Shown piece after piece: positions 8,659 through 59,439 of a stretch of 64,000 bases of DNA. Source of the DNA: Strongyloides papillosus (Eukaryota; Nematoda; Chromadorea; Rhabditida; Strongyloididae); contig SRSI01000060.1 of assembly GCA_005656395.1 (NCBI GenBank), positions 806,001 to 870,000 on the forward strand. Direction: 5' to 3'. Every line of letters starts with the position of its first letter. The stretch's first letter is position 1. The position numbers and the translations under genes are program-made. The notes under the pieces are model-generated. The model was not told where the DNA came from. It did not search any database and saw only the letters and a program-made list of their open reading frames with translations.

Positions 8659-11600
8659 ATGGAATTTTTTATAATTTTTATTTTAATAATATATCATTTT
8701 CCTCATACAACTTATACTTCTCTACACTCAGCTATTAGTTATTTCGATAAACAACTAAATACAATCTTTGAACAACATTCAAGATTTCGTATCATTGACA
8801 AAAGTTTACAAGATGTTTTTAATAAAAAAATTGAAAATGAAAAAATAGATTTTTTGACTGATAGTGAGGAAGTTTACAAAAGAGTTCAACAATTTTTTAC
8901 TGATAAAATTCATGCTGTTCAGGTTAATAATAATTATTAGAAGGTTTATAAATAAAGTTTTTTTGCTTTTTAGATGTTAACGGAAACTACTGAAAGAGTA
9001 TCAAAAGAGTCGCTTAACTTAATGAGAGATATTGAATTTATGGATTATTATCCACGTCTTCAGGATGGTGTGGGTCAATACAAGATAAATGAGGAGATAT
9101 GTAATAACCATTTGGTGCAATTTAATAAGTCAGATGTAACGGGTGAGTATTGGAAGGAAGGACGTGGGAGTACTTACTTTAAACATAATAAAGTATCAGG
9201 AATTCATTTGGCCGTTGAGGCATATAAATGTCAACCAGAGGTTATTAAAGATGTCAATTGGACATCACACAATGATATTCTTGAGACGTTTAGAAGAAAT
9301 GAGGTAGAAGATAAATATATATCAAGACAATATATTGGGACGTATAGTGGAGTTACAAGAATCTACCCCGCAGTACCATGGATAATTGAACCTAAAGAAT
9401 ATACATTTGATATTTTTGATCCAAGATACAGGCCATGGTTTGTTATGGCAGAATCAGCACCAAAAGATGTCCTCTTTTTGTTAGATTTTAGTGGATCAGC
9501 TAAAGGACAAACACAACATTTAACAAAAATGACCGTTCTTAATATATTAGCAACTTTAAATCCAAGTGATTACATTAATGCTGTTTGGTTTAATAGTAGA
9601 AGGGAATTGGTAATGAAGAATTGTTTTGAAGGTTTTGTTCCAGCAACATCACGTAATAAACGTTTACTAAGATCTCTTCTTGAAAATTTAGAGGATAGAG
9701 ACCAAGCATTTGTTGGTCCGGCAATAGAATATAGTTATGAACAATTTAAAAATCTTAATGATCTAAATGATACATATTCCTCTAATGGTCATAAAATAAT
9801 AATGCTCTTTACTGATGGTATTGAAGAATGGCCAACAAATGTTATTGAAAATTATACAGAAACAAACACTGATAACATAAGAATTTTTGGTTTTTCAATG
9901 GGTTATGGCATTGGGGAACAAACTTCATTAGATTGGATAGCCTGTAAAACAGACGCCGAGTATGCAATAATTAATTCTATTGCTGCTGTAAGACTTCAAT
10001 CAAGATTTTATTTATCAAAATTAAGTGAAGTCTTATCATATGTTTATCGTTCTACAGGTTCTGTTTTGACAAGGCCAATAATTTTTACCCCACCGTATAT
10101 GGATGCACAAAAACATGGTCCTGTAACAACATTATCCATACCTATTTTAAATTATACTAATGGTGAGGATAGTAAAGGTTTTATTGGTGTTGCCGCTATT
10201 GATTATAAATTAAGTACCTTAAAAAATGTAATAAATTTAAAAAATAGCAATTTTTATGCCTTCCTAATTGATAATAATGGAATTGTTTACTATCATCCAA
10301 AAATGAAATTACCAAAGAATGATATTTACATGATAAGGAGGACTGCTTGTTATAATATTAAAAATCCATATAGGCATACAAAAAAGATACAATATGGTTT
10401 TACTAATGAAGAAGTCTTGAAATTAATGAGTTTATCTGATTCAATTTCAACAACAGATATTTTAGAGTTAGAATTTAATACACCAATATTTGAGGAATTT
10501 AGAAAGATGATGATCGACAAAAGATGTGGCGAGGTTATAGAAGATGGTGATCGAGAGTATAGATGCTTGGTACTTGAAAATACTCCTTTAGTACTAGGTT
10601 TTGTTCACCAATTACAGGAACCATTTTTTAAATTGAAAAATAATGATGGTAAAATGAATGTTCATCCAAGTTTTAATGATATAACATTTTACCATACTGA
10701 CGTTAAGAGATTTTGTAATATAAGTTTAGATCATTTAACAAATGTTGAACGTATTCAAGAGATAACCTCAAGAACAAATGAGAGATGTAAGAAGGAAGAA
10801 AAGATATTTTTCAGTTACTTAAATGGACTTTCTAGTTGGGTAAATTCATGGTATGGTAAAAGGGATATTAAAGTAAAAGGAAACAATTTATGTAATAATG
10901 CTTTGTACATTCCACGAGACTTCTCCCTACAACATTATAAATTTTCTTTTGTCCAGACAAGAAAACATATAACAGCTGTTTTTCCAAAATGTTCTCAAAA
11001 TCATTTCCTTGATTATATAGATGATTTAAAATTTGACTTTCATAAACATAGAATTTATCCAAAATTACAATTTGTCATTCATAATGATGGTATAGCTACT
11101 ATCAAAAATATATTAACAAAGGATGGTGAAATTAAATTAGCTAATGTTGGTGTTGATTGGTCTCTTCACTTTGTTAATGAATTTTTTAAAAATCTAACCT
11201 ATAAAAATACGAATTGGAATATTTGTTTTAAGGTAAATATTATTATCATGTCATAATTATACATACTGTTTTTATAGAAACATTATGAGTGCTATATTGT
11301 AACAAAGGATAGTTTCATAATAGCCTCATCTAAAGTTAATTATTTTAATCATTTATTCGATGATTATAATTTATATAATGAAATGAAAAAAACGGGTTTA
11401 GTTTCACAGGTAGAGTATGCAAATTATCAACTAGAATGTCCATCAGCAAGATTTTTTAACAAAGCGCCAACTGCTTCAAGTGGTACAAAATTAAAGGATA
11501 CTATACACATTTTTTATTATTTTTGTAAAAGTTTTTTAAAATATTTGTACTGGTGGATATTTGTGCCCACACCTATTGTTGAGAGTCAACCAAAAATTGT

Positions 11601-12122
11601 TGATAACAATAATTGTACATATAATAAAAGAAACACTAATGAGTATTGCGCAAAAAAACAGACATTTTTTAAATTAAATGTTCATTCAGAGAAGGAAATA
11701 CAATTTGTTTTAGAAAATAGTTGTACTATGTATGTTTAAAACAAACTTTTTCATATTTTTAAATTTTATTGCAGTTCTTTAAAAATCTATCCTTTTAATG
11801 AAAGTGATTTATATTTATTTGTAAAGAATAGCCCATGTCATAATCATGAGACACATCAAGATGGTTTTATTGTTAAGGAGTATGATGCTAACATATGTGA
11901 GTAAAAATAATATATTATTTTAAATGAAATTTTTTTACAGTAAGCGATTGTTTGTTGCTAAAACCAAAATATAGGAGGATAAGAGAAGACTTAGATTATA
12001 CCAGATATCATTACAAGGAAGAACCAAGAGATTGTCCTTCAAGTAGTAGTTGTATATTAATAAACATAAAAATTCTACCAACGCTATTATTAACAAAATA
12101 CATTTTTCATAATTTTTTTTAA
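8659..12122 (+). CDS. Voltage-gated calcium channel alpha2/delta subunit (UNC-36/TAG-180 type)
   Basis: Five exons, 8659-8922, 8974-11232, 11278-11729, 11775-11896 and 11941-12122, give a 1092-aa protein; all phases close. Residues 1-19 are a signal peptide. The VWA_N region lies at about 90-240, with DIFDPRYRPWF just before the von Willebrand A domain. That domain starts at KDVLFLLDFSGSAKG; the MIDAS residues D-F-S-G-S are near residue 259, with a matching TDGIEEWP further on. A Cache-like region (FIGVAAIDYKLSTL, then FLIDNNGIVYYHP) follows at about 500-540. The remainder is the Cys-rich extracellular delta-like part, ending in a hydrophobic tail that could be a GPI signal or membrane anchor. 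Such subunits traffic and tune Cav channels and, in nematodes, act in neurons and muscle. I cannot tell which of the nematode paralogues this is. Confidence 0.93.
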
Positions 12123-20970: not shown

Positions 20971-23900
20971 ATGGATACTTCTTCAGGAGCTTCAAACTCA
21001 GGCTCTGCCAATGCTGCAGGATCATCTAATAATACAAATACTTCATCTACCACGGGATCAAGCTCGGTAACATCTAATAAAGCCTCAGCATCATCAAGGA
21101 CAGCTATAGATAAGGAGAAGTGTGTTGAAAGATTTATAAAAAGTATGTTATTTATAATAACATGAAATGTAAATAGTTATTAATATTTTTAGGTGTACAA
21201 TTTCCAGTAAGTGAAAGGTTAACGATAGAAGATGTGTATGATAAAAGGACGGGTAAACCACGCTCAGATGTGTTAAAGGAACATTTTATAAAAGAAGGTA
21301 GAATTGAGGAGGATGCAGCAATAAAAATTATTCAAGAATGTACAGCACTATTTAGACAAGAGAAGACAATGTTAGATATTGAGGCTCCAGTAACAGTATG
21401 CGGTGATATTCATGGTCAATTTTATGATCTTATGAAGCTATTTGAAGTTGGAGGTTCTCCAGCAAATACTAAATATCTTTTTCTAGGTGATTATGTTGAT
21501 AGAGGTTATTTTTCGATTGAATGCGTTTTATATTTATGGGCATTAAAAATTTGTTACCCTAATACATTATTTTTATTAAGAGGAAATCATGAATGTCGTC
21601 ATTTGACGGAATATTTTACTTTTAAGCAAGAATGCAAAATAAAGTATTCGGAGCGGGTGTATGACGTGTGTATGGATTCATTTGATGCTCTACCATTAGC
21701 TGCCCTAATGAACCAACAATTTTTATGTGTTCATGGAGGTTTATCACCAGAAATTCATACTTTAGATGACATTAAAAAACTTGATCGATTCAAAGAACCT
21801 CCTGCATTTGGTCCTATGTGTGATTTATTGTGGTCTGACCCTTTAGAAGATTTTGGAAATGAAAGAAATTGTGAACAATTCTCTCATAATTCAGTTCGTG
21901 GATGCTCATATTTTTATAGTTATGCAGCATGTTGTGACTTCCTTCAACATAATAATCTCCTTTCAATTATCAGAGCACATGAAGCTCAAGATGCGGGCTA
22001 CAGAATGTACCGAAAGTCGCAAGCTACCGGTTTCCCTTCCTTAATTACAATTTTTTCGGCTCCAAATTATCTTGATGTATATAACAATAAAGCTGCTATA
22101 TTAAAATATGAAAATAATGTCATGAATATAAGGCAATTTAATTGTTCACAACATCCATATTGGTTACCTAACTTTATGGATGTTTTTACATGGTCATTGC
22201 CTTTTGTTGGTGAAAAAGGTTTGTATATTAGTATACATAATTTTTAATAATTTATTTTTAGTTACTGAGATGCTTGTTCATATATTGAACATTTGCTCTG
22301 ATGATGAATTATTAACTGACTCTGATGATACTTTCGAGGGTAAGCTATCTTTCTATTTTTTAGGTTCCAGCTATTATTTCATTGCACAATTTTATTTAAT
22401 TTTTATGATAGATGCTACGTAATAATGCCTATAAATTTAAAGAAATAAGATAGTTTTAAAAACATCTAAATATAAATAGTACCTATTTTATCAATACATT
22501 CAAAGCACTTTTAATGCAAGATAAATTCTAATTAATCTTCTTTAAATACAGTAATTGCTATTATTAGTATATTAACAGTTTGAGTAGACATAATTAATCT
22601 AGTTTAATAAAAATAATTACTTTTACTATTAGGATTAAATTAACGTTAAGAATAGTAGTTTGATTTTTATTTAACTATGTAGAATTAAAAAAAAATTTGA
22701 ATGTTTGAGGCATAAATTATTACATAAAAAAATTACTTTAAAAATATTTAATATATCTTTTTCATTATCTTTTTCTCGTACAGGAGCTGAAGGTGAGTTC
22801 TTGCCAATTACCATGATTTGCTTTTTGATTCCAATATCGTTTTTAAAATTATCTACCCTTTTAACTCTGTAAAACCATAAACTCTAAATATAATTTTCCT
22901 TTAAATTATAAAAACAAGAGAACTAATTTTTTACCCAATAAAGTAAATATCGTTTATGTTTTTTGCTTCAAACCTTAAAAATATCTTGTTAAGTTACATA
23001 AATTTTCAATTTGCTTAAAAGTTTTTAATTGTTATTTAAATGCTTACCTATTTACAATACTCGTATTGAGTAGCTAAATAGCTTATATTATTTTAAAAAC
23101 AAAGTCAAATCTTTGTAAATTTTATTAAGGCGATTTTAGTTAACATTTACCTAACTGATAAATTTTATAATATGATTAATCCTTTTATTTTCCCTTTTTC
23201 GAATCTATTTCCAAGTGTTTATGTTAGAGGCCTTTGTTTATAAAATGTTTGTTTGCACATTTGTGTTCAAATTCACTTTTTATCCCAATCTATTAATTAC
23301 CTCCTACTTTTAGGAGGCATTCCAGCCGCCAGAAAAGAAGTTATTAAGCACAAAATTAGAGCCATCGGAAAAATGGCCAGAGCTTTCTCCGTATTAAGGT
23401 ATGTATTTTTTAAAAAACATATTACTAAAATATATTTAAATATTTTTGTTTTGTCCTTTGTAAAATGTCAGTATTTGACGAGCATAAAAATAAAAGATAT
23501 AGAATGCAGTTGTTTGCATTATAAAAATATGTTATACTAATATATTATGTTAAATTAATAAACCAATATCTTTATTCCATATTTAGAGAAGAAAGCGAAA
23601 CTGTTCTCCAGCTTAAGGGACTTACTCCTAGTGGAACATTACCAATGGGCACTCTACAAGAGGGTTCTCGTGGTATTCATAAGGGTATGTATATAATCTA
23701 TTATATGCATATATAATGACTATAATCTATCAATTTATTTATTTATTTTTTATCAATACATGTCATTTCACTTTTATTAATGTCTGAGCATGTCCAAATA
23801 ATATAAAAAAAATTTTATCACAAAAGATACGAAAAAAAGTGTGTTAGTAAATAAAAATTCATCGTAGTCCTAGTATTAAAAGTCCGGTTAAAGATATAAT

Positions 23901-24371
23901 ACTTATTATAAAAACAACAAGTACAAGTTAATTATAATTTTTTTCTAAACTATATATAGAAGTGAAAATGAAACAGTAGTACAGCTAAAGGGCTTAAATC
24001 CTTGTGGAAAATTACCTCAAGGTGCTTTATCAGGTGGACGACAGACATTAGAAGAATGTAAGTAAAATGACATGAACAGTAAAAAAGAATCATTGCCAAA
24101 ATTTGATAGTTTTATAGTTATTATATAAAATATAATTATTATAAAATATATATTTTAACTAAACATTATTTTAGCACTTCATGGAGTTGAACCTGGACAT
24201 CGTATTCAATCATTTGATGAAGCAAAACGTCTTGATAAGATAAATGAAAGAATGCCACCAACAATGTCATATGGTGCAGCAGGATCTTCGGGAAATTCAC
24301 CTTCATCTTCTCCACAGCCTCGCAAACCAAATATGCCTCCATCATCGACTTCTGGTTCATCAGCTAGTTAA
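20971..24371 (+). CDS. tax-6: Calcineurin A, catalytic subunit of Ca2+/calmodulin-dependent protein phosphatase 2B
   Basis: Exons: 20971-21142, 21193-22218, 22262-22339, optional microexon 22784-22792, 23314-23398, then one of two alternative exons (23587-23684 or 23960-24057), and 24175-24371. Each path stays in frame; with the microexon the product is 554 aa. The phosphatase core has all metal-site motifs: [10 protein letters not shown] (about residue 127), [46 protein letters not shown] and [12 protein letters not shown]. It is followed by the calcineurin-B-binding helix ([14 protein letters not shown]), the calmodulin-binding segment ([19 protein letters not shown]) and the autoinhibitory helix ([19 protein letters not shown]), then a Ser/Pro-rich tail. 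The N-terminus is Ser/Asn-rich. It dephosphorylates substrates in response to calcium; in C. elegans the orthologue is TAX-6/CNA-1, acting in sensory neurons and muscle. Confidence 0.96.
22784..22792 (+). other. Candidate 9-nt microexon of calcineurin A
   Basis: Nine bases (GAGCTGAAG) sit between a good acceptor (TCTCGTACAG) and a good donor (GTGAGT) inside an unusually long 974-bp intron. Exon 3 ends one base into a codon. Including the microexon inserts Ala-Glu-Gly in frame, and skipping it also keeps the frame, so it would be an optional cassette. It lies between the calcineurin-B-binding helix and the calmodulin-binding segment. Transcript support is not visible from sequence alone. Confidence 0.5.
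23587..24057 (+). other. Pair of mutually exclusive 98-nt exons in calcineurin A
   Basis: Exon A (23587-23684) and exon B (23960-24057) have exactly the same length and phase. They encode aligned peptides: [20 protein letters not shown] in A, and [20 protein letters not shown] in B. They differ most at the end: [10 protein letters not shown] in [11 protein letters not shown] in B. B's ending resembles the vertebrate calcineurin SGGKQTLQ segment. Both have proper splice sites (TATTTAG/GTATGT and TATATAG/GTAAGT). Using both shifts the frame and hits a TAG seven codons into exon B. Exon choice changes the linker between the calmodulin-binding and autoinhibitory helices. Confidence 0.85.
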
Positions 24372-26199: not shown

Positions 26200-28892
26200 T
26201 TATTCTGTTGGATTTAAAACAGTCTTGTAATGAAATGGTACAAATGGAACACCTGTACCAACATAAAATTTAGATTGGAACTCTACCCAATGAAGACGAA
26301 GGGCATGAAGGAAAGCTGACAATCCTTCCATAAGTACAAGAATAGATAGTGATAAAATTCCGAAGAAGAAAAATATGACGAATGCAGCTATGACACCACC
26401 AACTCCACTAACACCCCAAGCATTTTCAAGAATCATTTCCCACAACACTTCAGATAATTGAGCATGAGCAAGTGATAAAGCCCATAGACGAAGATATGAT
26501 GCTGTATGAGATACACATCCAAGAACGTATTCAATTGTGTGGATAGCTTGATGAACCATAATATCACCAAAAGCTTCATCATGATGTCCACCATGTCCAC
26601 CTTTTGGTACAACATCATCTATTATTTTCCCATTACTAATAACCTCAGCTTCATCTGTATGAGCGTTCATACGAACAGACATTGAATCTGATATTGCTTT
26701 TTTTGCCTTCTTTTGTTGCATAAGTATGTAGACAGGTTTTCCAAAAAGCATAATTGGGACACAGATAACTGCTACAATAACAAGTATAGCTTCAACAATA
26801 CTTTGACCTGGATACCATTGTTGAAGGAAACATGAAGGTTTTTCTCCATAAATTATATGACCATTTGATTCTGTTGTAATGATTTTATCCATATCAACAA
26901 ATCCAGATTCACGATCTTTAAACATGAACATGTTAATCAAACCAATTAATAATGATGGGGCACAATGTGAACCAGGGTATAATTGTCCAAAGACAATTTC
27001 TTCTTTAACCCAGAAAAATATCCATTTAAGGATAATTTGAAGGCAAAGATATATAAAGATACAAGAAAGGAATACAAGTTGTGGAATAAAGACAGTATAA
27101 ATATCAATTTTTGATTCAAAATATATATGATTTTGGAGAGATAAAAATACACCAAATGTCATTTGAGCAATACCAACAATAACAGAAAGTTTCATTTTCA
27201 TAGAGTTTAGGTAATTTAATTTATTTTCAGCAAGATTCCAAATTGGATCAACACCCATTGGATATGGTCCATTCTCTTTTAAATATGCATAGTCTGGTGG
27301 AAGTTCAAGTTTCATTTCCTCATGACCACCAGAACTTGATTGTTGGGAAAGCCATGATTCAATGGATTCATTAGTGTAAGGATTTCTCCAACTGGAACCA
27401 AAAATGTTAAATGATTTTGCAAACATATCATTGTACAAAAATCCAGCATATATTGAGAAAAGTCCCATTAAAAGGATGATGTAGCGTCCTCCAAAGAACA
27501 TTCCAAAAATTTCATCCTTTATATTTCTAGCAATAAGATTTTTTTCTCTAAGGACAAGATATAATCCAGCAAAGAACATAATAAGACCATGTCCAAGATC
27601 ACCAAACATGCATGAGAAGATGAAAGGGAAAGTAATGATAGTATATGGAGCTGGGTTAACTTCAAGATAATCAGCAATACCATATGAATCAACAATTCCT
27701 TGGAATACAGCTGTAAATTTATTTGTCTTATTGTATGTTGGTGGTATTTCATGAGTCTCAAGAATGTTTAAGACAGGTTTAATACTAGTACCATTTTTTT
27801 CAGCTCCAACTTCTAGGGCTTGTCTAACATCGGCGATATCGTCAAGAGGGACCCAACATTCAGCAACCATAAATCTACCAATTCCATCAAAGGTGAAAAG
27901 ATTCAATGAATGGTAAATTGATTTATATAATTTTACTTGTGTCATCCATTGGTTAATATTTCCAGCAGCAGCATTAAGAACTTTATTATTATGTTCATTT
28001 GTTTGTCCTAAAACTGTTCTTAAATCTTGAATACGTGCTTTAACTTCATGAGCAGCATGACCTCTAGCAGCAGAAGTTCTTGGGCAATTGTTGTATTGTG
28101 TTGCTTTAAAACCATCACAAACTTTATCAATAATACTCTTCAATCTAATACCATTGTAAAAGACAATAAAAACAGACTTTTGTACTTTTTCACCTCCATC
28201 GGATGACTCTAATGGGTCTTCTATTTCAGCATGTCTTAAGAAGGCAGTTCTTCTACCAGCTCTCCATAGAACTCTTTCAAATGAGTTAACTTTTTTAGTT
28301 TCAATAACTCCAATACAATATCCTATTGATTCTTTTTCTCCTTTGAGTTGAATTCCTTCATCATCCTCAACTTGATGTTCAATCTCTTCACGAGCAGCGT
28401 CATCAACACCGCCGGCAAAAAATTGGTCAGTTTTCTCGAGGACAGCTTCCCATTCCTTTTGCGCATTGTATGTTTTTTGGAGTTCCTTCTTAGAGTCACT
28501 CATTTGAGTTACATCACGCTCCAAATCATTAAGAGTATTCTCAAGTTCATTCATTGCTTGTTGATTGATAACTTCATATGATGGATCATTATAGTCAGGA
28601 ATGTTGATGTCGGCACGTCTTATCTCACTATCCAAAAAGCGTAATTTTCTTTCCAACTCTTCAAATCTCCTAATATCTTTGACGAAGACTCTTTGGAAAT
28701 TATTGACATCAGCGTTCAACTACAATCGTTTATTTGATTAAAAAAATGAGGGAAAATAATTTAATCTTAACTTACATCTTTAAATTGAACGTACGGATGT
28801 TTTCCAACTTCAGCAATACAGTTAAATGCTGCTTCCTTTTCCAAAATCATTTGGCAGAAGCGCATATGCTCTGATCGATAAAGAGATCCCAT
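26200..28892 (-). CDS. V-type proton ATPase subunit a (Vo sector, 100/116 kDa)
   Basis: Two exons, 28892-28776 and 28719-26200, encode 878 aa, the usual length for the family. The N-terminal cytosolic half starts MGSLYRSEHMRFCQMIL and contains a coiled coil with ERKLRFLDSEI. The C-terminal half has about eight membrane segments (for example TIITFPFIFSCMFGDLGHG). The motif RLWALSLAHAQLSEVLW carries the arginine essential for proton translocation (about residue 783). The second conserved arginine is in HALRLHWVEFQSKFY, followed by the typical C-terminus FVPFHYK. Subunit a forms the proton half-channels next to the c-ring. C. elegans has four paralogues (unc-32, vha-5, vha-6, vha-7). The N-terminus is divergent (CIAEVGKHPYVQFKD rather than the common ELGELGLVQF), so I do not assign one. 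The second exon is about 2.5 kb without an intron. Confidence 0.96.
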
Positions 28893-30927: not shown

Positions 30928-32422
30928 TTAATATCCCAATGAAATTAATGCACCATGAACAGCATCTATTACTTCATTTAAATTGTCTTTATTAAAAGAT
31001 AGAGGTGGTTTAAATTTAAGAATATTTGTATATGGACCATCAGCATTTAGTAGAACTCGATATTCTTGTCTTAATTTTAATATCAAAGCTAGAGCTAAAT
31101 TTGAATTTGGTTCACGTGTCTCAGGAGATTCAACCATATCAACTCCCCAAAATAATCCAACTCCACGAATATCTCCAATAACATTGGGATGTTGATTTTT
31201 TAACCAATTTAATTTTTCTTTAAATAGTTCACCCATTTTCTCAGAGTGTTCAAGAAGTTTTTCATTTTTAATAACTTTCATTACAGCTAAAACAGCACGA
31301 CAAGCTACTGGATTACCACCATAAGTATTAAAATAACCAACTTTTCCACCTAATGAATCCGCAATTTTCTTTGTTGTAACAACGGCTGAAACTGGAAAAC
31401 CATTTCCCATTGGTTTTCCCATAGTAATTATGTCAGGTGTAAAACCTAGGAAAAAATAGATGGATTATAAAAAAAGTAAATTAGGTAATTACCATCATCA
31501 TAGAGTTTGTGAGCCCAATAATTTTTCCCAACTCTACCAAATCCTGTCTGAACTTCATCGATAATTACAAGACCACCATGACTTCTAACGTATTTTGCAA
31601 CGTCATTAAAATAATCTTCTGGTGGTATTATTTGACCACCACAACTTTGTAATGCTTCCGCAATAAAAGCAGCAACGCCATATTCATTTTCTTTTTCTAG
31701 AATATTTTTAATTTTATTTGAATATTTTTTCCCTACTTCTCTACAAGCATCACTATCATTGAGTTTGCTATCAGGTAATCTATACTCTCCTCTATAAACA
31801 TCTGGAGTTGGTACTACATGAACCCATGATGGTTGACTGATTGTACATCCATGATTAAATTTGTATGGAGACATTTCCATTGTTGTTGTAACGTGACCAT
31901 GATAAGCGTGATCAAGAACAATGACATCACGTTTATTAGTGTAGTCTCTAGCTAGTCGCAGTGCTAAATCATTTGCTTCCGATCCAGAGTTACAAAAAAG
32001 AACAGTATCAAATTCTGGAAGTGTTTTTAATAATTCCTCAGCACATTCTGTTAATTTTGAATTAACGAAACGTACGTTACATGTTGCAGTTGATAGTTGA
32101 TCAGATATCTCTGATACTACATATGGGTGGCAATGTCCAACTAGTAAAAAGTGATATGAAAGTTAAAAGGAAAATTACCGTGTTGAACATTTGAGATACA
32201 GTCAATAAATTTTGTTCCTTTCTCATCATACAAATATTGCATAGAAGCTCTTGAAACAACAAAAGGATCATCTTCATAAAAAATTTGACATTTACTACCA
32301 ATATTTTTTTTTCTCTTTTCAAGTAAATCATTCTTCTCAAGAATGTCGCTTCTTGTATATGTTTTAATATTACTTATAGATGGAACATTAAAGTATCCAA
32401 GTAGTTGACAAACAATATTCAT
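30928..32422 (-). CDS. Class III PLP-dependent enzyme of the ethanolamine-phosphate / 5-phosphohydroxy-lysine phospho-lyase (AGXT2-like) family
   Basis: Three exons, 32422-32179, 32140-31493 and 31445-30928, give 469 aa with closing phases. Conserved features in order: YLYDEKGTKFIDCISNVQHG, then VGHCHP across the first splice site; the PLP-phosphate motif NSGSEANDLALRLAR; DHAYHGHVTT; the PLP-nitrogen aspartate in VIIDEVQTGFGRVG; and the Schiff-base lysine in ITMGKPMGNGFP (Lys308), then FNTYGGNPVA. The MGKPMGNG context and overall length fit the ETNPPL/PHYKPL branch rather than mitochondrial AGXT2. Those enzymes cleave phosphoethanolamine or phosphohydroxylysine to an aldehyde, ammonia and phosphate. 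No mitochondrial presequence is obvious. The exact substrate cannot be read from sequence. Confidence 0.92.
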
Positions 32423-34809: not shown

Positions 34810-37800
34810 TTAATTCTGTTTATCATTTCTGCGCAATAAACCAGCACGCCTAATATAATTGTATTGATCGGGAATTTCAAGAAGAGAATGAATTGCGAAT
34901 GATAGCTCTCCTTCGTTTGTGTTTGCTTTTTTCCTAATAATGTCATGAAATTCCACAAAATGAAAATTGTCCCATGGTCGTTTTGGTAGCGATTCATCAA
35001 ATACCTTCATCATCTCCCATGGACCATCACCTACCCCAACAACAATAATGGATAATGGGAAATTGCAGGCTTGAACAATAGCTCTTCTAGTGGCTTTTTC
35101 ATTTGTTACCTGTCCATCAGCAATAATAACTAATATAAAATACTAAAAAAAATCAATTGAAAAAGATATTTTTATAAATTACGTCATTCAATCAACATAC
35201 CTCTTTGTAATATGCACAAATTTCCATTGCCTGATGAATGAGGGGAGCAAAATTTGTTGGGCCACTCAAGTTAACGTCAGGTGTTATATTGTTATATGCC
35301 TCCAAAACCTCATCTAAATTCCTACATTCACGATCTTTTCTAATTTTAAAGACACTCCAATCACCTGTTGTTGCATCACCAAAACCATATACTGGAATAC
35401 CTTTTTGCGTAGCAAATGGAGCTAAAGTTTTTCCCATAACTTTAATTACTTTTTGATAAGGATTTTCAATTTCATTATCAATTGTATGCAAATTTTTACC
35501 GTCAAAACTATTTTCTCCTTGATATTTATTTGATGCAGTATAATCAATACCAAAGATAAGATTTGTTGATTCAAGGCCAGCTTTTTTCATTGCAGCTGAT
35601 AATTGATCTAAAGATGTTAATCTTAAAAGCATTTCTTGTGTACTTGTAACACCAAGTGCACTAAGTAAACTACTTTGACTTTTTCTCCTTTTTGCTTCGG
35701 ACCTTGATGTAATTGATGATACATCATCGTTTCTAGCATTAAAAGTTTTTCTTATTTTTGGAGCTTGTCCAAATCCTATTTGTATAGGTGACTTAGAATG
35801 ATCTCTTCTTGTTAGTGTTGAATCAGGTGGTATTGTTTCACCTAAGAATGGTACATTTTGTTCATTTGTAATTTTTGCTTCAATATCTTTATTATTATCT
35901 TCTGGTAGAGATTCTATATTATTGTCTGTAACATGCTCAGATGCTAAACTTAGCTGATCTGGTGGTATTTCAAGGGACTGAATTTCTGGAGCATATGTTA
36001 TAGTATCATCAACTTCATCGATGCAGATGTCAACTTTCTCAAAAACGTCATTTGTTTTGACAATATTTGATGTTGCATCGTGGGTTAAATTATTTGAAGC
36101 TTCTATAATATGCTTAAATTCATCATTTGGTACTTTTTCTAACATATCTTCTTCAATAACAAAATTATTTTTTGGTGGTTGACTTTTTTGTGTTTCAACA
36201 TAATCAATAGCATCTTGTAGATAAATATCAGCAGTTGCTTTATTTACTAAATCGTCATATTGGGACACACTTTTTTGGTTATCTTCTTTCTTAATATCTT
36301 CATTTTTGATTGGAATAGAAGGTTGAACAGTAGGTGTTGGTTGACGAAGACATTGAATCTCATCTAAATCTTGTAAATCATTTGTTGGTGATCTCTTTGT
36401 AGCTTCAGCTAAAAAGTTTTCAATAACGACAACAGCATCATTTATACACTCTAATGGTTCATCATTATAAGAATTTTCTATATGGTCATTAATTTTAATT
36501 GGTTGAACATAGTCTTTCAGCAACATATCAACGTCATCAGAAGGATTTGTTAATTTAAATTCAATTCCTTCCTCAAGTGGATTTATAATTTCAATGCTAT
36601 CAATTTGCTTATAATTTGATTGATTGACATCATGGGCAACATTATTATTACTAATTCCTGAATGTTTAATGATTTTTATATCATATTGTAAATAACTTAT
36701 AAACTTACTTTCAACATTGACAAATGTTTTTTGATTCAAATCGATATTATGCTGGATAGGCAACATATTATTAGCATCATAAATTTTTGTTTGCTGATAG
36801 GATTCATCAAAAATTTGTTGAGGGAGTTGTATACCAATATTATGATGCTTGCCTATCATGGGTTCGTCAACAATATTTTGTCTGTGTTGTGGTATCTCAG
36901 GAGCTCCATCTTTTATTTTACTTTCTGTAAAGATAGGTGATTCAGGTTTTATAACTTCTTTAAGTGCTTCATTAATCTCTGAAATATCATTTTGATTTTT
37001 TGGATAATTGCATTCATCTTTTTTATTGTTTGTGGCAACTTCTTCATAATACTCCTGAAGCAACACATTTACTTCCTCTGCAGCTCTTTCACTTATTGTT
37101 TCCAATTCAGGTTTCAATTCAATTGAAGGATCATCATCACGAAATATGGGTACACTATGTCTTTCATTGTTATAATCAGGAAATTCAACTTTTTCATAAC
37201 TAATATCACTAGGTTCTTTCATTAGTTCATCATCAGATGGATCAATTTTAACAAAGCCATTTTCACTATCTGATGACTTTTTATGCTCATTTTCATTAAT
37301 CTCCTTAAAGTGTTCTTCATTTTTAGAAATGTTATTGAGAGAATTAGTACACTTATCAATTGATTTATGTTGATAGATAGTGTCTTTAATATGTTCTTCC
37401 AACTTATTTTTTAGATTTTGAGCATCAATATCAGTACCTCCTTGACTAATGACATCTTCCATTGCTTGTTTAATATCTTTATCATATATTTCAGTTAATG
37501 AATTTGCCAAATCTTTATAGTTGGAGAAATCATTTAATGCAGGAATTGTTCCTATATCTGTTTGGAGTTGTTTTGAGAAGTTATGATATATTTTATCAGC
37601 TAACTCCTTATATGTTCTTTCTAATGATACACTAGCATCATTAGAAATATCATTTTCTGGATAATTATCATTGGAATATATAATATTATTTTTGATTTGT
37701 TGTCCCTTAACTCTAAAAGTATTATTAGATATGAATAATATGATTAGCTGACATACCTTTGTGATGATTGTAGCTTTGTTCCATTATTATCAGTTTTACC

Positions 37801-57847: not shown

Positions 57848-58420
57848 TTAAATTTTTTGATTATTGTTACTGCTGTCATTACTATCTAAATCTTTTTTTA
57901 AGACGCGCCGTAAAAATGGGTACCTGTATTTTCTACAATCAAAAATTCTGATACATTTTTTTTCATGTGAAATAACATTTGGAAATTTACAATCGCAACC
58001 TTCTCCCACACATTTGAAAAAACAAGGCTTCCAGATATGAAGCTCGTTACATGTTCGTTGGCAAGGTGCTTTACATTTCGTGTAAATTTGATTTCTCGGA
58101 CACCATGGTGTTGTAGTTGGTCTGTCGATTGTTGTTTTAATTTTTTTTGGACAATTTCGTTTTTTCACACATTTATATTTGCTAATTAAATAGTAATCTT
58201 TTTCACATTGACATTGATAGTGATAACAATGATAAAGGCATTTTTGTTTTGATTTATTTAAATTTGGACATGTTTTTAAACATTTACGTTCGCATTTCCT
58301 ATATTTCATACCTTTTGGACATATCACTCTTTTTCCATTTATAACAATATTTAGAATAAGAAAGAAAATAAAAGAAATCAAATACAACTTTATAGTTAAA
58401 ACCATTCTATCCAACAACAA
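57848..58420 (-). CDS. Secreted protein with two TIL (trypsin-inhibitor-like) cysteine-rich domains
   Basis: A single intact exon of 190 aa. A hydrophobic leader (IKLYLISFIFFLILNIV) follows a short N-terminus; the start could be Met1 or Met6. Two domains of ten cysteines each follow. The first runs from ICPKGMKYRKC to KKRNC (about 34-90). A Thr/Pro-rich linker (TTIDRPTTTP) leads to the second, from WCPRNQIYTKC to RIFDC (about 106-164). Spacing C-x-C-x3-C-x3-C and the closing C-x-C fit TIL domains of the nematode serpin-like/BSTI inhibitor group. Such secreted proteins often inhibit serine proteases; target and stage are unknown. The C-terminus is basic then Ser/Asn-rich. It is the only clean gene inside the inverted-repeat spacer. 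Confidence 0.88.
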   Translation of the reverse strand: MLLDRMVLTIKLYLISFIFFLILNIVINGKRVICPKGMKYRKCERKCLKTCPNLNKSKQKCLYHCYHYQCQCEKDYYLISKYKCVKKRNCPKKIKTTIDRPTTTPWCPRNQIYTKCKAPCQRTCNELHIWKPCFFKCVGEGCDCKFPNVISHEKKCIRIFDCRKYRYPFLRRVLKKDLDSNDSSNNNQKI

Positions 58421-59439
58421 AATGTATGTGAAAGTATTATCCTTCTAAAAGTATTTTATAGCCATTTAAAATAGTAGCGTAATTATTTAATATAATTACT
58501 ACAGTTCATTATGTTTAATTTTACCAAAAATCTGTAAACTATACAAAGATCATTTAAATAATCTTTAACTGTGATGTCAATGATTGATTATTAAAATTTC
58601 TCATCTTTTAAAAAAGTAAAAGTGTAGATTTTTCTGTGCTCATAATTTGTAAAAAAATTTTTTGTTGTGAAATAAATATCTGTATACATAAAAAAATGAG
58701 ATTCAAACCTTTAAGATTTGTCTAAAAGATATTGATTCAAAACTTTTATAAAAATATATTTATAGATAATTAATCACATATTTTTAATTCATGAGATTGA
58801 TATGATATAGTTGTTTTATACTTTTTTTTATTTATTATACCTTACAATGACGTTAGTTTATTTTGACATAAATATTAAAGCTATCACATTAAAAATTATT
58901 TTTTGATAATTAAACAATCTGATATCTAAAAAGCATCATAAACAAACAATTAAAGAAAATATATATATAAATGCAATATAAGTTATTAGAAAGCTTATTT
59001 TATAATTATCAACTATTATTTAAAAAAATTTATAAATGTTTTTTTAAAATTTAGTACTTTTTAATAGTATTTTATTATTTTATAGAAAATAATTGAAGTA
59101 TTTGTAGAAAATTTAACTATGCTTTTCATTTTTACACTTTTTAAGCATTGTTTAAAATTTTTATTTTTTTTAATGTATTAAAAAAAGTCAACTAATTATT
59201 TAATAAATATAAAACAAAATGTTTAAAAATAAATAAAATGATTTTTTGAATCAGCTTGAAATTTATCATTAACACTGATGATTTAATAATAAACTACTAA
59301 AGAACATTAACTTTACAAATATAACCAACAATAATAACCACTAATTTATTTTTAGTACAAAATGATTTGGAAATTTTTTTAAAGAGATTTTAATTTGTAA
59401 TCCTCTATCCTCTATATTTATAGAGGAGAGATTTTAGCC
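58421..59439. other. Upstream region of the TIL-domain gene
   Basis: AT-rich with no coding sequence. A perfect 8-bp-stem hairpin, CCTCTATA-TT-TATAGAGG, lies at 59409-59426, just before the diverged repeat extension begins. Confidence 0.4.

What the first reader, a model, noticed from the sequence alone, without database searches (positions are those of the whole stretch)
23587..24057. Duplicated, mutually exclusive exons in calcineurin A rewrite the linker before the autoinhibitory helix
Two exons of exactly 98 nt, 275 bp apart, are in the same phase and encode clearly homologous peptides ([15 protein letters not shown] and [15 protein letters not shown]) with different ends (EGSRGIHK and GGRQTLEE). 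Either one alone keeps the frame into the autoinhibitory exon; both together hit a stop seven codons into the second. Calcineurin sits between calcium signalling and its substrates, and this linker controls release of the autoinhibitory helix. The exon choice could therefore tune activation, perhaps by tissue or life stage. I do not recall this arrangement being described for calcineurin A in other animals.
Basis: partly seen in the sequence, partly recalled or inferred. Interest (0 to 1): 0.78.

Follow-up and report, generated by a model that had tools for sequence, protein, structure and literature searches.

The report
Known swappable exon pair in calcineurin
A nematode calcineurin gene carries two look-alike exons that can replace each other in the enzyme's regulatory linker; it is real, but it is the counterpart of a pair already described in C. 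elegans, with a few differences worth testing.

Summary
The calcineurin A gene (coding exons within 20971-24371, +) has two homologous 98-nt exons, A (23587-23684) and B (23960-24057), in one phase. Either alone gives 551 aa; both, or neither, hit an early stop. The reading as a mutually exclusive pair is very probably correct but not new: C. elegans tax-6 has the same pair, exon 13a (neuronal) and 13bc (muscle-enriched), in PMC12503234. Trees of the 33-residue units put A with the 13a type and B with the 13bc type across three nematode suborders, so the duplication is probably old (modest support, one of six pair tests at p=0.055). A Panagrolaimus isoform pair differs only in this segment. 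What differs here: (i) A and B are equally long, as in Panagrolaimus, so the published long/short-linker idea is not general in nematodes, although 4 of 10 B units are longer; (ii) exon B lacks the serine that CMK-1 phosphorylates in C. elegans; (iii) a second donor 4 nt downstream of A would join both exons in frame, matching a public gene model; (iv) the 9-nt tax-6 microexon is present too (22784-22792). No RNA data were available: exon use is inferred.

The parts
20971..21142 (+). calcineurin A coding exon 1 (ATG at 20971)
   Evidence: spliced product matches solved calcineurin A chains
21193..22218 (+). coding exon 2, most of the catalytic domain
22262..22339 (+). coding exon 3
22784..22792 (+). 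9-nt microexon (GAGCTGAAG), frame kept with or without it; counterpart of the 9-nt alternative exon 11 of C. elegans tax-6
   Evidence: AG/GT borders and both products (554 or 551 aa); 5 of 32 nematode proteins listed carry a 3-residue insert at this place; C. elegans exon 11
23314..23398 (+). exon before the pair: calmodulin-binding helix and ARAFSVLR, the counterpart of the autoinhibitory segment ARVFSVLR; the codon of the last R spans the junction
   Evidence: ARVFSVLR named as the segment in a passage of PMC8470620
23587..23684 (+). alternative exon A (13a type): keeps the serine of the CMK-1 site ([10 protein letters not shown])
23685..23688 (+). GTAT between two tandem donors of exon A; use of the second donor would join A to B in frame
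   Evidence: the product has the junction HKGISENE seen in public protein P0001
23685..23959 (+). 275-nt intron between the alternatives, with single GCATG (23788) and GTGTG (23839)
   Evidence: lead only
23960..24057 (+). alternative exon B (13bc type): N instead of S at the CMK-1 site ([10 protein letters not shown])
24175..24371 (+). last coding exon with the autoinhibitory helix ([19 protein letters not shown]) and the stop codon
   Evidence: aligned to the same stretch of mouse/human calcineurin A

Best explanation
This is the tax-6 (calcineurin A) gene of a clade-IV nematode, probably a Strongyloides, and exons A and B are the counterparts of the mutually exclusive exons 13a and 13bc of C. 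elegans tax-6. Shown by sequence: the two units, their splice sites, the frame logic, and their grouping with A-type and B-type units of other nematodes. Inferred: each transcript takes one of the two; transcripts with both (through the main donor) or neither carry an early stop, so the choice can be enforced after splicing even though the 275-nt intron is long enough for both to be joined. Inferred by homology: A is the neuronal and general form, B the muscle-enriched form. The choice rewrites the 33 residues that follow the autoinhibitory segment. At the start it decides whether the CMK-1-type phosphoserine is present (A yes, B no); at the end it changes where, by my mapping, the calmodulin-induced distal helix begins. 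I expect the main effect to be on phosphorylation feedback and on calmodulin-driven activation, not on catalysis itself.
For: Exon anatomy and frames. PMC12503234: exons 13a and 13bc mutually exclusive, 13a at least 98% in neurons, 13bc about 65% in muscle, 9-nt exon 11. Same order here: A-type is 5', B-type 3'. Unit trees: A one side of a branch (19 rows, 95/81), B one side (10 rows, 94/67, not starred); with pairs only, A 87/81 and B 83/100. Species-specific pairing gave p under 0.05 in 5 of 6 tests (0.006, 0.018, 0.0067, 4e-5, 0.032; C. angaria 0.055). Panagrolaimus P0011 and P0008, both 545 aa, differ at 17 residues, all within 448-480. Both window units conserved against P0001.
Against: The trees rest on 33 columns; in the larger tree the test of window plus P0001 as one clade gave p=0.053. 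A/B labels of single-unit proteins were given by resemblance. The second donor allows an in-frame double form, and 7 of 171 retrieved public proteins carry both units. Simple helix propensity does not separate A from B. The AlphaFold models of the Panagrolaimus pair were too poor to use (mean pLDDT 48).
Confidence: 0.87

Rival explanations
1. Both exons are normally included together through the second donor of exon A, giving a calcineurin with a doubled linker.
For: The +4 donor makes the double form open to the end and gives exactly the junction of public protein P0001; 7 of 171 retrieved proteins, from Ancylostoma, Pristionchus, C. angaria, Onchocerca and the P0001 organism, show two units.
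Against: Those look like automatic gene models with differing ad hoc junctions. Ascaris, Toxocara and Panagrolaimus entries have one unit each, Panagrolaimus as a clean pair, and C. elegans transcripts are mutually exclusive. I saw no RNA support either way.
Confidence: 0.06
2. One exon is a decaying duplicate that is rarely used.
For: No expression data here; 3' splice sites of A and B are interrupted by A more than those of the other introns (by eye).
Against: A keeps 32 of 33 and B 31 of 32 residues against P0001, like the rest of the protein (535 of 551); intact splice sites and frame; B-type units persist in distant nematodes.
Confidence: 0.04
3. The pair arose by a separate duplication in this lineage and resembles tax-6 exons 13a/13bc by convergence.
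For: Test of the window and P0001 units as one clade was not rejected in the larger tree (p=0.053).
Against: Rejected in the pairs-only tree (p=0.006); between species, like units share 18-28 residues for B and 23-27 for A (P0001 aside), within a species A and B share 16-22; marks such as LTP..QEG in A and LN..GGK/R in B recur.
Confidence: 0.03

Closest known systems
C. elegans tax-6 exons 13a/13bc (PMC12503234; abstract, passages and five sections or sub-sections read, supplements not seen)
   Same: Same gene, same linker (LR2), same 5'/3' order, two homologous exons of which one is used, same shared 9-nt microexon upstream.
   Different: C. elegans 13bc is 21 nt longer than 13a; here both are 98 nt. 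In C. elegans the CMK-1 serine S443 is in both exons; here only in A. Tissue use is known there, not here.
Vertebrate PPP3CA/B/C exon 13 (skipping of a 30-nt exon; PMC12503234 and PMC11662586, passages)
   Same: Alternative splicing of the same linker.
   Different: Cassette exon that adds ATVEAIEADE after the conserved unit; no duplicated exon. The conserved unit there is constant.
coq-2 mutually exclusive exons of helminths (PMC7434440, listing and start of abstract only)
   Same: An exon pair in nematodes, the paper also naming Strongyloides.
   Different: Unrelated enzyme and purpose.

Membership tests
calcineurin A (PP2B catalytic subunit) | catalytic domain, B-binding helix, calmodulin-binding helix and autoinhibitory helix in that order | tested here: met
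   Spliced product aligned over 45-527 with 4orb_A (E 3.7e-266) and 45-527 with 1aui_A (1.8e-261)
tax-6 exon 13a/13bc pair | two homologous exons between the calmodulin-binding exon and the autoinhibitory exon, 13a type upstream | tested here: met
tax-6 exon 13a/13bc pair | common descent of each exon with 13a or 13bc | tested here: met
   C. elegans P0047 (13bc) falls with exon B, (94/67, not starred); the C. elegans 13a protein itself was not in the set, C. briggsae P0030 and C. auriculariae P0020 stood for it
tax-6 exon 13a/13bc pair | long (13bc) versus short (13a) linker | tested here: not met
   98 nt each; unit to NERMP 56 residues in both. I take this as a feature of the C. elegans pair, not of the homology
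tax-6 exon 13a/13bc pair | CMK-1 serine (S443) in both exons | tested here: not met
   S in A, N in B; B units overall 8 S and 2 N of 10. Same remark
mutually exclusive exons | either exon alone keeps the frame; both or neither break it | tested here: met
   for the main donor; the +4 donor is an exception
mutually exclusive exons | transcripts contain one and only one of the two | not testable with these tools
   no RNA data on hand
mutually exclusive exons | tissue-regulated choice | not testable with these tools
   known for C. elegans, inferred here

The most novel reading that the evidence does not exclude
In this lineage the exon choice is a switch between a kinase-regulated calcineurin (A) and a kinase-blind one (B): exon B has lost the CMK-1 serine, so the exon, not the tissue's kinase content, fixes whether calcineurin can receive that feedback. 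PMC12503234 suggested that the muscle form in C. elegans may never be phosphorylated; here that would be hard-wired in the sequence.
Probability: 0.22. Interest if true: 0.5.

Novelty: new member of a known kind. Interest (0 to 1): 0.3.

Why it matters
It carries a described C. elegans splice switch into what is probably a parasitic genus, and it constrains how that switch can work: equal lengths here and in Panagrolaimus mean that linker length cannot be the shared effect, while exon-specific residues are kept. The lost serine in exon B is a natural counterpart of the S443A experiment. It also flags a recurrent annotation error: public calcineurin models that fuse both exons.

Tried and rejected
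Idea that the pair encodes the autoinhibitory segment itself: dropped, because the segment is ARVFSVLR (PMC8470620 passage), here ARAFSVLR, encoded upstream up to the split last codon. Idea that A and B differ in helix propensity where the distal helix starts: no clear difference (0.525 against 0.508 and 0.481 against 0.459 kcal/mol per residue). Idea that AlphaFold models would show the linker docking differently: mean pLDDT 48.0 and 48.4, linker under 50, not used and not searched. Steric exclusion: unlikely with a 275-nt intron when other introns of the gene are 43 and 50 nt. Splicing-factor motifs: GCATG and GTGTG both occur in the intron between A and B; both together in 0.05% of 2,000 shuffles, each alone in 2.7% and 5.5%, but 12 motifs in 7 introns were looked at and the factor names are recalled, so this is a lead only. 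Synonymous against non-synonymous change: dN 0.46, dS 1.74 between A and B; dS is near saturation. A search with the exon-B stretch alone found 2 proteins among 9 candidates. Loss of the CMK-1 serine is not unique: of 178 units in the 171 retrieved proteins 164 have S and 14 have N; the 12 N rows shown include many fish proteins. Paper searches: nine; one search found nothing; Li et al. 2016 (10.1038/cr.2016.14) is not held. One search crashed on a pattern and was run again in mended form.

Full report
Observation. The window holds a complete calcineurin A gene on the + strand (coding exons 20971-21142, 21193-22218, 22262-22339, optional 22784-22792, 23314-23398, 23587-23684 or 23960-24057, 24175-24371). 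With the preceding AG they encode [33 protein letters not shown] (A) and [33 protein letters not shown] (B), 17 of 33 identical, 55 of 98 bases identical. The residue at the next junction also differs, A after exon A and S after exon B. Each alone gives 551 aa. A+B stops at the seventh codon of B, and skipping both stops early in the last exon. The likeness is far above chance (score 87 against at most 33 in 20,000 shuffles).

One correction to the frame argument. Exon A ends in GG followed by GTATGTATAT. A cut four bases later joins A to B in frame through K-G-I-S-E-N-E and the product is open to the end. Public protein P0001, 97% identical to the window's protein (535 or 536 of 551 aligned residues), has this same junction. 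I could not see its DNA or any reads, so it may be only a gene-model choice.

What it is. PMC12503234 (Rudgalvyte and Glauser 2025; I saw the outline with abstract, passages, part 1 of the results section, the sections on S443A and on the model, and the list of supplements, not the supplements themselves) describes mutually exclusive exons 13a and 13bc in C. elegans tax-6, an optional 9-nt exon 11, and counterparts in C. briggsae, C. brenneri and Pristionchus pacificus according to the legend of its S2 figure. Exon 13a makes up at least 98% in neurons and about 87% in the intestine; about 65% of muscle transcripts have 13bc. Its main text does not contain the word Strongyloides. Five of 32 nematode proteins inspected carry a three-residue insert at the microexon place.

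Relatives. Two protein searches gave 934 and 983 proteins at E up to 0.001, of which only the best 120 each were listed, and a third gave 2; 171 distinct proteins were kept. Seven of the 171 carry two units, the first always of A type and the second of B type (P0003 by its near identity to P0004). A tree of 41 units (19 A, 10 B, 12 others; two of the rows are the window's) puts A on one side of a branch (95/81) and B on one side (94/67, not starred). I left out of it near copies (P0003, P0004, P0016, P0019, P0122, P0124), the truncated P0045, the partial B stretch of P0009, and most vertebrate and arthropod rows; labels of single-unit proteins were given by resemblance. Therefore I repeated it with seven pairs and six others: A 87/81, B 83/100, and six tests of species-specific pairing with p of 0.006 (window with P0001), 0.018, 0.0067, 4.3e-5, 0.055 and 0.032. 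In the larger tree the first of these tests had p=0.053. Taken together one old duplication, before Caenorhabditis, Ancylostoma, Pristionchus, Onchocerca, Panagrolaimus and this lineage parted, is the better reading, but 33 columns set the limit. Trichinella and Trichuris entries have one unit, nearer to A. The clearest single item: Panagrolaimus P0011 and P0008 are 545 aa each and differ at 17 places, all within 448-480.

Length. PMC12503234 stresses a long and a short linker. In the window both exons are 98 nt; the distance from unit to NERMP is 56 residues for A and B alike, and so it is in the Panagrolaimus pair. Among ten B units it is 56 in six (window, P0001, P0002, P0006, P0007, P0008) and longer in four (60 P. 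fissidentatus, 62 C. brenneri, 65 C. elegans, 66 O. flexuosa; the first and last are from fused gene models). So a length difference exists in some lineages and is absent in others; the exon-specific residues are what is shared.

The serine. CMK-1 phosphorylates S443 of TAX-6 in vitro within VLREESESVL (13a) or VLRHESESVL (13bc). Exon A keeps this ([10 protein letters not shown]). Exon B has [10 protein letters not shown], with N at that place. Of the nematode units, A has S in 19 of 19, B has S in 8 of 10 and N in the window and P0001. N also occurs in Romanomermis, one unnamed row and a number of fish proteins, so the site is dispensable in some calcineurins. [quoted passage not shown] exon B here is an exception to the first and fits the second.

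Place in the protein. The autoinhibitory segment is given as ARVFSVLR (passage of PMC8470620); its counterpart ARAFSVLR is encoded by the exon before the pair, up to the split last codon, so the choice begins right behind it. A distal helix that forms when calmodulin binds, residues 441-458 of human alpha, is needed for full activity (passages of PMC7456046); by my own count on recalled numbering it starts in the last eight residues of this unit. So the exon choice touches both ends of the activation machinery, but no effect on activation is shown.

Mechanism. Shown: anatomy, frames, conservation. Inferred: one exon per transcript, with early stops removing wrong joins; A mainly neuronal, B mainly muscle by homology; effect through phosphorylation feedback and calmodulin response. 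Unknown: regulators, stage use, and whether the in-frame double form exists.

Organism. Not named by any search. The closest protein P0001 had its organism cut off in the listing. Base composition (18-32% G+C per 2 kb), genome size 58.2 Mb in 79 contigs and the clade-IV-like protein fit a Strongyloides as I recall that genus; this is inference.

Verdict. A sound observation and a mostly sound reading of something already described. The additions are equal lengths, the missing serine, the tandem donor and the microexon.

Noticed in passing
   Followed up: yes
P0001, P0002, P0003, P0004, P0005, P0007, P0014: Public calcineurin A models of several nematodes contain both alternative units in one protein, probably automatic gene models that joined mutually exclusive exons.
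   Followed up: partly
P0009 and P0045: Haemonchus model joins the A unit to the tail of a B unit; Teladorsagia model has a shortened A unit. Probably mispredicted.
   Followed up: no
window 23788 and 23839 (+): Single GCATG and GTGTG in the intron between A and B, resembling motifs that I recall for FOX-1/ASD-1 and SUP-12 muscle splicing regulators in C. elegans.
   Followed up: partly
window 8974-11739 (+): Long open frames (760 and 153 aa) that look by eye like a voltage-gated calcium channel alpha2-delta subunit with a VWA domain; no family search was run.
   Followed up: no
window 26200-28719 (-): 839-aa open frame that looks by eye like V-ATPase subunit a in one exon. The C. elegans relative unc-32 is known to me (recalled) for mutually exclusive exons; none is visible within this single exon.
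   Followed up: no
window 30928-32162 (-): Two open frames that look by eye like a class III aminotransferase.
   Followed up: no
window 35192-37783 (-): 863-aa open frame ending in what looks by eye like a copine-type domain.
   Followed up: no
window 57848-58444 (-): 198-aa cysteine-rich open frame that looks by eye like a TIL-domain protease inhibitor.
   Followed up: no
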